Source: Rhodobacteraceae bacterium WFHF2C18 (lineage in GTDB: Bacteria; Pseudomonadota; Alphaproteobacteria; Rhodobacterales; Rhodobacteraceae). Taken from it: DNA of 64,000 nt. A program made the translations under genes and the position numbers. The stretch is from contig NHTQ01000002.1 of NCBI GenBank assembly GCA_002166865.1, positions 1 to 64,000 of the forward strand. The letters are read 5' to 3'. A model generated the notes under the pieces. The model searched no databases. It saw only the letters and a program-made list of their open reading frames with translations, and was not told the DNA's origin. Positions 13,083-19,880 of this stretch are shown in pieces; within the stretch, counting starts at the first letter, position 1; each line of letters opens with the position of its first letter.

Positions 13083-14129
13083 TCAGCGCTTGAAGACCCG
13101 GTCGGTGAGGTTGCAGCGCCCCGCCACGATGGGGGCAAGCGTTTCGGCGAGGGCCGGATCGGCCTGCTGCAGGCGGTCGAGTTCGTCCAGGCGGTTGGCC
13201 GCCACCAGGTCCAGCGCATCGAGCCGCACGCTGCCATCGGCGTGACGCGGCAGGGCGGGAACGGGCTGTATGAGGTCGGGGCCCGGGGCCGGCGCATGGG
13301 CGCGCACCGTCTCGGCCGGCAGGTCGGTTTCGACGAAGGCATAGAGGCCCACGCCCTTGGCGGGGCGGGCGTAGGTGCACAGCGCCACGTCGGCGATCCC
13401 CGGCGCGGCCAGCAGGGCGCGGCGCAGGGCCGGGCCCTCGCGGGCGATGCGGTCCTCGGTGCCCTCGCTGTCGGACCAGTTCATGAGCCGGCGGGTGACG
13501 AAGTTGTAGGCCCGTTTGCCCGTGGCCATCCAGACCCGGGCGGGCCAGGCCTTGTGCGCCAGCATCCGCCGCTCGGCCGGGGTGAGAAGGTGCGCGGCAT
13601 AGGCGCGCTTCTGCTTGAGCAGGTGGCGCAGATCCTCGCGCGCCATGAGCCGAAAGAGCCGCCCCCGCCGGCGGTGGACCGAGGCCAGCTGGAAATCGAT
13701 CACCGCCGCGCGGCCCTCGGGCGTGACCAGCCAGTTCTGCGGCTTGGCGATGTCGTTGTGTGTGACACCGGCGCGGCGCATTTCGCGCAACAAACGCTTG
13801 GCATCGCGATACCATTCGGGATCGGTGGGTTTTGCCAGTTGCAGCGGAGTGCCTTTGGTCCAACTCCGCAGGAGGCCGGTTTTGTCGACGCGTAACAGAA
13901 GGGGGCAGCCTTCTATGCCTTGCACGGCGCGTAACGCGCGGATCTCCTTCCGGGCGAGGGCCCACGCGATAGGCTTGGCGTAAACCGGCACGGTGTCGAG
14001 TTTGCGCAGGACCACCGGGAAATCGGGGTGTCCGTCAAGCGTGCCGGAAATGGTTTCGGAGAAGATATCGCGCTTGTGCACGGTTTGCGGAAGGAAACGA
14101 GCCTTGGCGATATCCGGGGTGACCGTCAT
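13083..14129 (-). CDS. Kinase-like protein with C-terminal ANL-ligase-like lobe
   Basis: This is a 348-residue protein of unknown role. The N-terminal two thirds look like an atypical protein/small-molecule kinase of the RIO/InaA kind: VVLRKLDTVPVYAKPIAW as a Lys-bearing region, a catalytic loop GVTHNDIAKPQNWLV (HND replacing HRD), and VIDFQLAS in place of DFG. The last 110 residues resemble the small C-terminal domain of adenylate-forming (ANL) enzymes: GIADVALCTYARPAKGVGLYAFVE followed by LPRHADGSVRLDAL, where the usual catalytic Lys is not seen. It lies downstream of two glycosyltransferases on the same strand, so a cell-surface substrate is possible but unproven. Confidence 0.7.
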   Translation of the reverse strand: MTVTPDIAKARFLPQTVHKRDIFSETISGTLDGHPDFPVVLRKLDTVPVYAKPIAWALARKEIRALRAVQGIEGCPLLLRVDKTGLLRSWTKGTPLQLAKPTDPEWYRDAKRLLREMRRAGVTHNDIAKPQNWLVTPEGRAAVIDFQLASVHRRRGRLFRLMAREDLRHLLKQKRAYAAHLLTPAERRMLAHKAWPARVWMATGKRAYNFVTRRLMNWSDSEGTEDRIAREGPALRRALLAAPGIADVALCTYARPAKGVGLYAFVETDLPAETVRAHAPAPGPDLIQPVPALPRHADGSVRLDALDLVAANRLDELDRLQQADPALAETLAPIVAGRCNLTDRVFKR

Positions 14130-14170
14130 GGCGCTGTCTTAGTGGTTTTCAGGCACGGGGGAAAGCGGCG

Positions 14171-15004
14171 TTAGAGCCGCTGCCAAGACGGCGGGCAGAT
14201 ATCATCATGCTCTAAAGAATTTTGGTTAAACCATTTCTTTGGCGTTATTACTAATTTATTAGGATTCTGATTTAACCACGCGCCCCACCATGAAAAAGTA
14301 GAGTTCGCAATGACATTATGAGAGCACAATGACATCAGATGTAAGTCCAAGTGACCTTTGTCTGCACCGTTGATATCAACATATACTGTATCACATTCAA
14401 TATTAAGATTATCCCTTGCCCAAGAAATATCGTTGGAAAATACGAAACAAGTTATGGGTTTTGAGGTGCGTTGGCATATTTCATAGATTGCCTCTTTATA
14501 ATATTCCATATCCAATAAGTTAAAAATTCCAAAAGAGAGGTAATCACCGCGGCGAATATGTAGGGACACCGCGTTGTCATTCTCCTTGATTGTATCAGCC
14601 ATTTTCTTATTGACGTTATCGAGGGGTGTTGTGAGCATCAATTCTTTTTCAAGTTCACTCTTAACTTTTTCTGCATATTTGTAGCTATGCCAGTAGCCTT
14701 GAATGTAAGTTCCTTCAGGGCAATTGAATAGATTGGCGTCATACTTACGCCCGCTTTCTCGAAAAAGAGGTATGCCAAATCCCAAATGACGCCATGCCCA
14801 ATACTTTATTGGATTGGAGTTTTTCGACGGCGGAAGATGCTTAGGAGGAGACAAATACGCATGCGAAAAATGTTCCAGCCCATTTTCCTCAACATAACGA
14901 GTGTCCAATGCGAGCAGTTCGTTGTTAGCTTTCGCTAATGCTCTACCAGCCGCATATTGAAAGAGCTGGTTGCCTAGACCGCCCATTAGTCGAGACACGA
15001 TCAT
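14171..15004 (-). CDS. Alpha-1,2-fucosyltransferase-like glycosyltransferase (GT11)
   Basis: GT11 enzymes transfer fucose to galactose in surface polysaccharides. The 277-residue protein has the conserved start GGLGNQLFQYAAGRALA, the GDP-fucose-binding motif HIRRGDY (residues 149-155) and the late motif NSTFSWWGAWLN. It is clearly AT-rich with codons unlike its neighbours, pointing to recent transfer. It is encoded behind the GT25 gene, 41 nt apart, probably co-transcribed. The family call is firm; linkage and acceptor are inferred from family only. Confidence 0.9.
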   Translation of the reverse strand: MIVSRLMGGLGNQLFQYAAGRALAKANNELLALDTRYVEENGLEHFSHAYLSPPKHLPPSKNSNPIKYWAWRHLGFGIPLFRESGRKYDANLFNCPEGTYIQGYWHSYKYAEKVKSELEKELMLTTPLDNVNKKMADTIKENDNAVSLHIRRGDYLSFGIFNLLDMEYYKEAIYEICQRTSKPITCFVFSNDISWARDNLNIECDTVYVDINGADKGHLDLHLMSLCSHNVIANSTFSWWGAWLNQNPNKLVITPKKWFNQNSLEHDDICPPSWQRL

Positions 15005-15650
15005 ATCTTTTTCTTTCTTATGCTTAAATTGTGCGCCAAGCTATCTTACTCACGATTCGATAAAATCCTGACCTTTCGACGATAAATAGTTCGTTTTATT
15101 TCACGCCTTATTTTTTGAATAAGGTTTTCGGGGGAGTGCTGTATTGTCGTTCCTCCCACTTTGTGATCACAATGGTAAACTCCGGAAGGATAAATGACAC
15201 AGGGTTGTAAGCCTGTGTACCAATAACTCTGTACGAATGTATCGACTGGGCGATCAATTACTACAGAGCGTTCAAGCAACTGCTTTGCAGCTTTAGAGCT
15301 TACCATTTGAGCAGTCGCACCTAATCCGGGCTCCCGAGATTTCACAAGATTTGCCGTCGATAGATGATCAAGAACTTGGTATTTTGCTTTCGGAGGGTGT
15401 GATTTGAATTTAATAAATCCAAGGGATTCTATGTGAATTGAAGCTAGTTGGACAGCTGAAGAGAATTCGCTTTCAATTATTTTAATATCGTCTTCCAAGA
15501 TCAGCGCCGCATCTAGTTCTTTGTTCAAGATGTCAGCCCAGATTTGCCGATGACTCAAGAAGCAACCGATTTCGCCTGCGTTCAGAGGAAAGGGATATTC
15601 CGGCTGAAATAGCCGTGGGCATATTACAGCGGAGCGCTCGTCTTGGGACA
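14200..15650. other. AT-rich island (acquired surface-glycan DNA)
   Basis: Between roughly 14200 and 15650 the base composition falls to visibly AT-rich sequence while both flanks are strongly GC-rich. The edges are inside genes: the right edge is within the first 40-50 codons of the GT25 gene and the left edge is within the last codons of the GT11 gene. No transposase, integrase, tRNA or terminal repeat was found at either edge. Homologous exchange between two strains with conserved flanks would explain this better than insertion by a mobile element. Confidence 0.75.
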
Positions 15651-15774
15651 TCGCTGTCCCGTCCACTGCGGGCCAGATTTCTCCCTCCAGCCCGCAGGTT
15701 TCAAGTAGCCTGTCCGCATTGGCGCGGCGGGCCGTGGCCCGCTCCAAGTGCAGAACGTAGGCGCGGATCCGCAT
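15046..15774 (-). CDS. Glycosyltransferase family 25 protein, chimeric base composition
   Basis: This is a GT25/LOS-type glycosyltransferase of 242 residues, probably adding galactose or another sugar to lipopolysaccharide. The N-terminus RAYVLHLERATARRANA, the AGEIGCFLSH motif and the acidic metal site LILEDD (94-96) match the family. The first 40-odd codons are GC-rich like the host chromosome; the rest is AT-rich like the fucosyltransferase gene behind it. This suggests a recombination joint inside the gene. It starts only 7 nt after the aldehyde dehydrogenase stop, so it may be read from that gene's promoter. Confidence 0.85.
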   Translation of the reverse strand: MRIRAYVLHLERATARRANADRLLETCGLEGEIWPAVDGTAMSQDERSAVICPRLFQPEYPFPLNAGEIGCFLSHRQIWADILNKELDAALILEDDIKIIESEFSSAVQLASIHIESLGFIKFKSHPPKAKYQVLDHLSTANLVKSREPGLGATAQMVSSKAAKQLLERSVVIDRPVDTFVQSYWYTGLQPCVIYPSGVYHCDHKVGGTTIQHSPENLIQKIRREIKRTIYRRKVRILSNRE

Positions 15775-15781
15775 CGGACCG

Positions 15782-17224
15782 TCAGGCGCCTGGCGTCCAG
15801 CCCGAGACGGCCTTGACCTCGAGGAAGTCCTCGATGCCCCACTTGCCGCCCTCGCGGCCGTTGCCCGACTGCTTCATGCCGCCGAAGGGCGCGCCGAGGC
15901 CGCGGGGCTGGCCGTTCATCTCGACCATGCCCGAGCGCAGGGCCAGGGCAACCCGGTTGGCGCGGGCGCCGTCCTGCGTCTGGACGTAGTTGGTCAGCCC
16001 GTAGGGGGTATCGTTGGCGATCGCGATGCCCTCTTCCTCGGAGTCGAAGGGGATGATCGACAGGACCGGGCCGAAGATCTCTTCGCGCGCGATCGTCATG
16101 TCGTTGGAGACATCCGCGAAGACGGTGGGACGCACGAAGTAGCCCCGGTTGAGCCCCTCGGGCCGGCCGGTGCCGCCGGCGACCAGCTTGGCGCCCTCGT
16201 CGATGCCGGTCTGGATGAGGTCCTGGATCTTGTCGAACTGCACCTCGTTGACCACGGGGCCCATGTGCGGCCCCTCTTCGTGGGCAGAGGCGACGCGTGT
16301 ATTCTCCGCCGCCTCGGCGGCGGTTTCCACGGCCTTGTCGTAGACCTCGCGCTGGACCAGCATCCGGGTGGGCGCGTTGCAGGATTGCCCGGAGTTGTTC
16401 ATGCAGTGCGCCACGCCCCGGCGCACGGCCTCGTCGTCGGCATCGGCGAAGATCAGGTTGGCCCCCTTGCCGCCCAGTTCCAGGCTGACACGCTTCAGCG
16501 ACTCGGCGGCGGTCTTGGAGATCAGCTTGCCCGCGCGGCTGGAGCCGGTGAAAGAGATCATGTCGATATCCGGGTGCTCGGACATCTGCGAGCCGACCCC
16601 GGCGCCATCGCCGTTCACCAGGTTGAACACCCCCGGCGGCACGCCGGCCGCGTCCAGCATCTCGGCGAAGAGCATGGCGTTGAGCGGGCTTTCCTCCGAC
16701 GGCTTGAGCACCATCGTGCAGCCGGCGACGATCCCGGCGATGACCTTGAGCGTGATCTGGTTCATCGGCCAGTTCCAGGGCGTGATCATGCCCACCACGC
16801 CGATGGGTTCGTGCACGATCCGGTCGTTGGGCGCGTGATCGCCCAGGGGCTGGATGAACTCGAACTCGCGGCCGACCTTCATGAAGGCCTTCATGTGGCC
16901 GATGCCGGCGCCGACCTGCTGCTTGCGGGCAAGGTCGATGGGCGCGCCCATCTCCAGGCTGATCGCCCGGGCCATGTCCTCGCCGCGGGATTTGTAGATC
17001 TCGTAGAGCTTCTCGATCAGTGCCAGGCGCTCCTCCTTCGAGGTGCGCATCCAGTCGGGGAAGGCGGCACGCGCGGCCGCCACGGCGGCGTCGGTGTCGG
17101 CCGGTCCGCCGAGGCTGATGACCGCGCAGGGCTCCTCGGTGGAGGGGTCGATCACGTTGTGATCGCGGCCGTCCTTGGGTTGCACCCATTCGCCGCCTAT
17201 GTAGAAGTTGCGTTTCTCGATCAT
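15782..17224 (-). CDS. NAD(P)-dependent aldehyde dehydrogenase
   Basis: This 480-residue enzyme of the aldehyde dehydrogenase superfamily oxidises an aldehyde to the acid. The general base Glu249 (SLELGGKGANL) and nucleophile Cys282 (NNSGQSCNAPTR) are in place, as are the ITPWNWP and FTGS cofactor motifs and the EEIFGPVLSII motif. ATG 17224 is chosen for its GGAGGT ribosome site; the frame upstream to 17278 is not homologous. It is divergent from the peroxiredoxin gene. The natural substrate is not evident from context. Confidence 0.91.
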   Translation of the reverse strand: MIEKRNFYIGGEWVQPKDGRDHNVIDPSTEEPCAVISLGGPADTDAAVAAARAAFPDWMRTSKEERLALIEKLYEIYKSRGEDMARAISLEMGAPIDLARKQQVGAGIGHMKAFMKVGREFEFIQPLGDHAPNDRIVHEPIGVVGMITPWNWPMNQITLKVIAGIVAGCTMVLKPSEESPLNAMLFAEMLDAAGVPPGVFNLVNGDGAGVGSQMSEHPDIDMISFTGSSRAGKLISKTAAESLKRVSLELGGKGANLIFADADDEAVRRGVAHCMNNSGQSCNAPTRMLVQREVYDKAVETAAEAAENTRVASAHEEGPHMGPVVNEVQFDKIQDLIQTGIDEGAKLVAGGTGRPEGLNRGYFVRPTVFADVSNDMTIAREEIFGPVLSIIPFDSEEEGIAIANDTPYGLTNYVQTQDGARANRVALALRSGMVEMNGQPRGLGAPFGGMKQSGNGREGGKWGIEDFLEVKAVSGWTPGA

Positions 17225-17355
17225 GGTTGACCTCCGTAGATTCGGCGGCACAGTGGCACCGCAATCGCCGACCCGCAAGATCGGACGTCAAGAGAACTGC
17301 CGGAATTTGATCAAATTCCGAAACGCGTCAAACTGCAACCGGAAAGGATACACGC

Positions 17356-19208: not shown

Positions 19209-19880
19209 TCAGCCCTTGTCGAACCGGCCGCGGTTCGCCGGGGCCCAGAAGATCGACAGCGCGATCACGCTGAAGACGAATTCATAGACCTCCCATTTCC
19301 GGGGCAGGTCGATCACCGCGATCAGAAGGCTGGCGCCGAAGGCGATGCCGGCGTGGCGCAGGCCCGGCAGCGGCACCGCCAGCGTGTCGGTCAGCCGCGC
19401 CAGGACCGGCACCCGCGGGTAGAGCAGCGGCAGCACCACCAGATAGAGCAGCAGGACGACCGTCAGGACCGATCCGAACAGCGTCTTGGCCAGCTGCTGT
19501 TCGCCGACCACCAGGTTGTGCAGGTTCGTTTCGCGCTGATAGTTGTGTTCGCGGAAGAACTCGGTCGTTTCCCAGCCGAACACGCGCTGGCCCCAGGAAA
19601 TCTCCTCGCCCGCGGCGAAGAAGAACAGCAGCGCGTAGAACGCCACCAGCGCCGTCGCCCCGAAGGCCCGGCGCCCGGCAAGGCGGGCGGCCTGCCAGAC
19701 CAGCACGCCCGAGGCGCCCAGCAGGAAGAGCGCCGTGCTCCATTCCACGGGTCCGTCCTCGGCGGCGAAGCCTTCCGCGAAGGGCTGCGCGAAGCCGGTC
19801 AGATAATACAGCACCGAAAAGAAGAGGCTGGCGTAGGCCAGTCCGAAAAGGAGTTGATCGACGGGGCTGAGGCGGGGCAT
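19209..19880 (-). CDS. Conserved polytopic membrane protein (EEISWGQR motif)
   Basis: I do not know a function for this protein of 223 residues. It has about six hydrophobic helices, with the most distinctive sequence in the middle: FFAAGEEISWGQRVFGW, then ETTEFFREHNYQRETNLHN. The charged EEISWGQR and NLHN elements next to membrane helices suggest a polar site within the bilayer, as in intramembrane enzymes or transporters, but this is inference. It converges with the deacylase gene (14 nt) and lies behind rpsU on the same strand, separated from it by a terminator. Confidence 0.75.
   Translation of the reverse strand: MPRLSPVDQLLFGLAYASLFFSVLYYLTGFAQPFAEGFAAEDGPVEWSTALFLLGASGVLVWQAARLAGRRAFGATALVAFYALLFFFAAGEEISWGQRVFGWETTEFFREHNYQRETNLHNLVVGEQQLAKTLFGSVLTVVLLLYLVVLPLLYPRVPVLARLTDTLAVPLPGLRHAGIAFGASLLIAVIDLPRKWEVYEFVFSVIALSIFWAPANRGRFDKG

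What the first reader, a model, noticed from the sequence alone, without database searches (positions are those of the whole stretch)
14171..15774. Glycosyltransferase gene with a composition joint inside its coding sequence
The GT25 gene starts with GC-rich host-like codons, then becomes AT-rich from about codon 40, and the adjoining GT11 fucosyltransferase is AT-rich until its last codons. Both edges fall inside genes and no mobile element is present. This looks like allelic replacement at a surface-glycan locus by homologous recombination anchored in conserved ends.
Basis: partly seen in the sequence, partly recalled or inferred. Interest (0 to 1): 0.58.

Follow-up and report, generated by a model that had tools for sequence, protein, structure and literature searches.

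The report
Glycan gene swapped by nested recombination
In this Roseovarius-type bacterium a pair of sugar-transferase genes was partly overwritten with AT-rich foreign versions that joined in the right place and reading frame, a clear example of a known way in which bacteria change genes for surface sugars.

Summary
GT25 (15046-15774) and GT11 (14171-15004) form one of only two tracts under 0.48 GC (1-kb scale) in 464 kb of the contig. One joint lies at GT25 codon 39 (window ~15658), the other at ~14204, about ten codons before the GT11 stop.

ALDH-GT25-GT11-kinase is an orthologous locus: 42 of 60 chosen relatives of the genus have all four genes, with near-host GC3. So an allele was exchanged in place. 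GT25 codons 1-42 group with G293/G276/G254, codons 43-242 with G319/G313/G258.

The GT11-kinase spacer and kinase codons 1-122 are also G293-clade-like in sequence and GC3, whereas the rest of the kinase and rpoB group with the host's sister G251. The locus looks nested: host / G293-like / AT-rich / G293-like / host.

Best explanation: at least two homologous-recombination events at a variable glycosyltransferase locus, a new member of a known kind. The donor of the AT-rich block was not found, and some controls are mixed (ALDH AU test, hyp19).

The parts
14205..15657 (-). AT-rich inner block (GC 0.416): GT25 from codon ~40 to its stop, the GT25-GT11 spacer, and GT11 up to about ten codons before its stop
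   Evidence: breakpoints; GC; trees
15658..15774 (-). GT25 codons 1-39, GC-rich, like G293/G276/G254
   Evidence: identity 0.85 to G293 before the joint, 0.49 after; tree 99/96* on codons 1-42
15046..15774 (-). GT25 gene, open chimeric frame, 242 aa
   Evidence: PF01755, E 1.2e-21, residues 5-180
14171..15004 (-). GT11 gene (fucosyltransferase family), 277 aa
   Evidence: PF01531, E 3.9e-30, residues 7-275
13764..14204 (-). Right G293-like segment: last GT11 codons, 41-bp spacer, kinase codons 1-122
   Evidence: aa identity of kinase 1-122: 0.93/0.91/0.88 to G293/G254/G276, 0.74 to G251; breakpoint codon 122, range 105-156, 0 of 10000 permutations; GC3 0.72 against 0.91
13083..14129 (-). Kinase-like gene, mosaic, 348 aa
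   Evidence: NF006620 (PRK09188 serine/threonine kinase) E 7.5e-134 but 446 bits, under that model's cut-off of 490; no Pfam family; trees
15782..17278 (-). Aldehyde dehydrogenase gene, left flank; outer left edge placed roughly at ~15803 (range 15760-15970)
   Evidence: PF00171; best break after ALDH codon 492, 229 of 10000 permutations as good

Best explanation
The locus ALDH-GT25-GT11-kinase of this Roseovarius-type bacterium is a mosaic made by at least two homologous recombination events. One brought in DNA like that of the G293/G276/G254 clade, from about the ALDH/GT25 junction (~15803) to kinase codon ~122 (~13764). Inside it, 1.45 kb (about 14205-15657, GC 0.42) comes from an AT-rich allele of the same two glycosyltransferase genes, joined at GT25 codon 39 and about ten codons before the GT11 stop, so that both frames stay open. 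Shown: composition, synteny, tree conflict, breakpoints. Inferred: the crossover mechanism, that the enzymes decorate a surface glycan, that selection (phages, for example) favours the change, and the order of events. The simplest history is a donor of the G293 clade that already carried the AT-rich block; two successive exchanges in this lineage fit as well.
For: Orthologous locus in 42 of 60 chosen relatives with GC3 near the flanks. Inner joints by identity scans; the stretches identical to G293 (15699-15668) and to G319 (15681-15658) overlap at the left joint. GT25 N and C parts in different clades, 99/96* and 100/99*, C part 100/98* in a protein tree with other genera. Kinase codons 1-120 with the G293 clade 99/93*, codons 121-348 with G251 96/87*; AU tests reject kinase N with G251 (p 0.008) and kinase C with the G293 clade (p 0.029). 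Site likelihoods change sign at codon 122, 0 of 10000 permutations, while ALDH shows no break (4204 of 10000). 41-bp GT11-kinase spacer shared, of 43 relatives measured, only with G293, G276 and G254. Kinase GC3 drop -0.19 against mean 0.001, sd 0.044 in 53 relatives. rpoB, codon positions 1+2: window sister to G251, 99*.
Against: AU tests do not exclude all reverse groupings: GT25-C with the G293 clade p 0.06, GT25-N with the G319 type p 0.219, ALDH with the G293 clade p 0.128. The groups tested were chosen after seeing the identities, so the p values are optimistic. In the ALDH tree the window lies in a starred set of seven rows and G251 is not its nearest row. The kinase N protein tree puts G293 nearest but no starred branch holds the window. 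Of four neighbouring genes scored, ALDH and TSA favour G251 (-36.8, -13.4) but AstE and hyp19 the G293 clade (+4.6, +23.5), so G293-like signal is not confined to this tract. The left outer edge is weak (229 of 10000). No donor of the AT-rich block was found.
Confidence: 0.8

Rival explanations
1. Single exchange only: the AT-rich block replaced the native allele, and the G293-like ends are simply what the host lineage inherited (no outer layer).
For: hyp19 and AstE nearby also favour the G293 clade (+23.5, +4.6); ALDH with the G293 clade is not rejected (p 0.128).
Against: The kinase changes sides inside one gene, in tree, likelihood and GC3 at the same codon; rpoB and kinase C go with G251.
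Confidence: 0.15
2. The AT-rich pair entered by a mobile element or illegitimate insertion.
For: Strong composition contrast; the donor is unknown.
Against: The genes are orthologues of those at the same place in 42 of 60 chosen relatives, the joints lie inside the homologous genes and in frame, no mobile gene among 15 window proteins scanned, no tRNA.
Confidence: 0.02
3. Assembly or contamination chimera.
For: Only one genome with this block is held; no reads were seen.
Against: The block lies inside a 770-kb contig of a genome rated 99.56% complete and 0.1% contaminated; the joints keep frame at homologous positions, and the kinase has a second, independent joint.
Confidence: 0.02
4. No import: local mutation bias or relaxed selection made the genes AT-rich.
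For: GT genes of relatives are slightly below their flanks in GC3 (mean -0.04).
Against: The shift here is about ten times as large, and tree and composition change at the same place.
Confidence: 0.01

Closest known systems
Replacement flexible genomic islands exchanged by homologous recombination in aquatic prokaryotes (Lopez-Perez et al. 2014, PMC4033161; abstract and outline seen)
   Same: Same place, similar function, different sequence; exposed structures; exchange by homologous recombination
   Different: There whole islands and raised substitution at the borders; here two genes, with joints inside coding sequences, across a large GC difference and between species
Capsule and O-antigen locus exchange through conserved flanking genes (review PMC6249986; passages seen)
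   Same: Conserved flanks with a variable glycan cassette between them
   Different: Here the crossovers of the inner block lie inside the glycosyltransferases themselves, and the locus holds one to three glycosyltransferase genes
Gene-level exchange and mosaic organisation of Campylobacter lipooligosaccharide loci (review PMC7248181; passages seen)
   Same: Exchange within a glycosyltransferase locus
   Different: Other organism; the passages seen describe gene and locus classes, not base-level joints with a composition change

Membership tests
Allelic replacement by homologous recombination (mosaic gene) | Recipient locus is orthologous and syntenic in relatives | tested here: met
   42 of 60 chosen relatives have ALDH, GT25, GT11 and kinase
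Allelic replacement by homologous recombination (mosaic gene) | Parts of one gene have conflicting trees | tested here: met
   GT25 N 99/96* and C 100/99*; kinase N 99/93* and C 96/87*; but AU p 0.06 and 0.219 for GT25
Allelic replacement by homologous recombination (mosaic gene) | Joints in stretches of sequence identity | tested here: met
   Left joint: 32 nt identical to G293 and 24 nt to G319, overlapping; right joint only short: alignment, breakpoint by identity
Allelic replacement by homologous recombination (mosaic gene) | A donor carrying the imported allele | tested here: not met
   None in genus, family and class samples, plasmids, phages; viral contigs searched for GT11 only
Replacement flexible genomic island (exposed structure) | Variable glycan genes between conserved flanks | tested here: met
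   Between ALDH and kinase: nothing in 6, GT25 without GT11 in 5, GT25-GT2-GT11 in 1 of the 60 relatives
Replacement flexible genomic island (exposed structure) | Enzymes act on LPS, capsule or another surface glycan | not testable with these tools
   Only family membership: PF01755, PF01531

The most novel reading that the evidence does not exclude
GT25 works in this genus as a swap module: a conserved N-terminal stretch of about 40 codons is kept and serves as crossover point, while divergent, AT-richer C-terminal parts of one minority type (window, G319, G313, G258) circulate among distant species with different partner genes (GT11 or GT2), a pool of glycan alleles that crosses species lines. 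In support: these four C parts group at 100/98*, their carriers are spread over the rpoB tree, the three others are next lowest in GC3 against their flanks, and the GT11 of G258 stays with its rpoB relatives.
Probability: 0.3. Interest if true: 0.5.

Novelty: new member of a known kind. Interest (0 to 1): 0.32.

Why it matters
It gives near base-level joints of an exchange that crossed a large sequence and GC difference while leaving two enzyme frames open, and it shows how one small glycosyltransferase cassette between ALDH and a kinase varies through a genus. The kind of process is well known; the use is as a worked case and as a test locus for phage or surface selection in roseobacters.

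Tried and rejected
Phage origin: GT11 matches 102 phage records, all under 60%, the 12 listed at 31-34%; GT25-C matches 3, at 27-33%; one viral contig matches GT11 at 35% (GT25 was not searched there). Plasmid origin: GT11 9 records at 26-34%, GT25-C 18 records, the 15 listed at 28-37%. Donor search, own genome included in each count: GT11 in the class 6 of 385 genomes at E <= 1e-30 and in the family 50 of 345 at E <= 1e-20; GT25 in the family 51 of 248 at E <= 1e-10. Outside the genus nothing exceeded 46% (GT11) or 45% (GT25); within it the best were 51% and 59%.

Placing the window's GT11 failed: beside distant outside rows at 80/80 in one tree, at the base of the genus clade in another. What holds in both is that it is not in the G293 clade and not sister to G251 alone. 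hyp19 and AstE went against the simple outer-layer picture. RluA and BHMT could not serve as controls, for lack of taxa.

The 60 relatives were picked by me from the 83 of the genus for a GT25 or kinase match, so their shares are not frequencies in the genus. Trees are void: family rows on the minus strand had been translated without turning them; redone. In one search one row (f_G802) was still out of frame; it was left out.

Full report
Observation. The finding is real and well placed. GT25 and GT11 have GC3 0.45 and 0.41 between ALDH (0.92) and a kinase-like gene (0.85). At the 1-kb scale the tract is one of two below 0.48 GC in 464 kb of its contig. In the other (C5:388223-389940) no ORF of 90 aa or more lies between L282:4333 and 5831, and a tRNA lies at L282:5637-5718. 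The block 14205-15657 has GC 0.416.

Who carries the locus. The four named hits are all Roseovarius, so the genus is probably Roseovarius. In the genus, 71 of 84 genomes have a GT25 match and 53 of 84 a GT11 match at E <= 1e-10, own genome and distant paralogues included. I fetched 60 relatives chosen for a GT25 or kinase match. Of these, 42 have ALDH, GT25, GT11 and kinase with GT25 and GT11 next to each other; 6 have ALDH and kinase without either; 5 lack GT11 only; 3 show ALDH-GT25-GT11 without the kinase there; 2 ALDH-GT25; 1 an extra gene between GT25 and GT11; 1 the kinase only (61 rows with the window). The extra genes scanned are family-2 glycosyltransferases (PF00535) in G319 and G278 and a PF04488 protein in G313, which is followed by a further frame that reads like a GT2 but was not scanned. 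The place is thus a variable glycosyltransferase cassette.

Composition in relatives. GT25 GC3 minus the mean of the flanks is -0.43 in the window; 53 relatives have mean -0.043, sd 0.043. The next lowest are G258 (-0.22), G319 (-0.17) and G313 (-0.15), the very genomes whose GT25 C part groups with the window's.

Inner joints. Identity of GT25 to G293 falls from 0.85 to 0.49 after nt 117 (2-lnL range 114-120; 0 of 1000 permutations); G276 and G254 give nt 117 and 116. There the window shares 32 identical nt with G293 (15699-15668) and 24 with G319 (15681-15658); the overlap is where a crossover between the two types would lie. Codons 1-42 group with G293/G276/G254 (99/96*, only 126 columns); codons 43-242 with G319/G313/G258 (100/99* DNA; 100/98* protein with other genera). 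The reverse groupings are not firmly excluded: p-AU 0.06 for the C part with the G293 clade, 0.219 for the N part with the G319 type. The right joint is at 14204 against G254 (14200-14205). Against G276 it is 14191 with a wider range, and against G293 the best point is 14124 with 14205 at the edge of its range, so this joint rests mainly on G254. Both frames are open; GT11 matches its Pfam family over residues 7-275 of 277, GT25 over 5-180 of 242.

Outer layer. Right of the joint, the 41-bp spacer has a length shared, of 43 relatives measured, only with G293, G276 and G254 (0.76, 0.80 and 0.88 identical). Kinase residues 1-122 are 0.93, 0.91 and 0.88 identical to G293, G254 and G276, and 0.74 to G251, which ranks 50 of 54. 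In residues 123-348 G251 is fifth of 53 (0.78), G293 49th (0.71), G276 44th and G254 24th. DNA trees: codons 1-120 with the G293 clade 99/93*, codons 121-348 with G251 96/87*. AU tests reject the N part with G251 (0.008) and the C part with the G293 clade (0.029); the groups were chosen after seeing identities. A quick protein tree of the N part puts G293 nearest but no starred branch holds the window. Site likelihoods change sign at codon 122 (range 105-156; 0 of 10000 permutations), while ALDH shows no break (4204 of 10000). Kinase GC3 is 0.19 lower before codon 122 than after; 53 relatives average 0.001 with sd 0.044, and G251 has 0.89 in that part. rpoB (codon positions 1+2, quick tree) puts the window beside G251, 99*. 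The left outer edge is only roughly placed, near ALDH codon 492 (229 of 10000 permutations).

Results against a neat picture. Of four neighbouring genes scored between the two placements, ALDH and TSA favour G251 (-36.8, -13.4), AstE and hyp19 the G293 clade (+4.6, +23.5). In the ALDH tree the window sits in a starred set of seven rows, its nearest row is not G251, and holding it with the G293 clade is not rejected (p-AU 0.128). G293-like DNA may therefore have entered this neighbourhood more than once.

Donor. None was found. The window's GT11 is a deep branch whose place changes with the rows used. Plasmids, phages, viral contigs (GT11 only) and genomes of class and family gave nothing closer than the genus alleles.

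Mechanism. Uptake of homologous DNA and exchange by crossovers in conserved stretches accounts for gene order, frame, spacer and the lack of mobile genes. One genome cannot tell whether one donor of the G293 clade already carried the AT-rich block or two exchanges followed each other here. That the enzymes decorate a surface glycan is inferred from their families; selection by phages, grazers or hosts is not tested.

What is known. Exchange of loci for exposed structures by homologous recombination is described for aquatic prokaryotes (PMC4033161, abstract and outline seen; PMC4119200, passages) and for capsule and O-antigen loci with conserved flanking genes (PMC6249986, passages). A search for Roseovarius with glycosyltransferase and recombination listed three papers, none with these words in title or abstract; further searches were on the process, not this genus. 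So I found no report of this locus in the open-licence library; other literature was not searched. The finding is a new member of a known kind.

Noticed in passing
C5:388223-389940 of the own genome (L282:4223-5940): The only other tract under 0.48 GC (1-kb scale) in 464 kb; no ORF of 90 aa or more between L282:4333 and 5831, and a tRNA at L282:5637-5718.
   Followed up: partly
window 19209-19880 (hyp19): This gene favours the G293 clade over G251 by 23.5 lnL units although its GC3 (0.89) is host-like: perhaps another, older exchange.
   Followed up: no
G258, C7:147304-148990 (L126): Minority-type GT25 next to a GT11 that groups with its rpoB relatives; both genes about 0.21-0.22 lower in GC3 than the flanks: probably an independent exchange at the same locus.
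   Followed up: partly
G109 (other genus of the family), C71:47804-49806: Its GT11 and GT25 C part group with those of G286 of this genus (100/99*; 95/76), a sign of exchange between genera.
   Followed up: no
G304, G280, G306, G297, G275, G268 (L177-L182): ALDH and kinase lie 96-281 bp apart with no glycosyltransferase between them: empty-site form of the cassette.
   Followed up: partly
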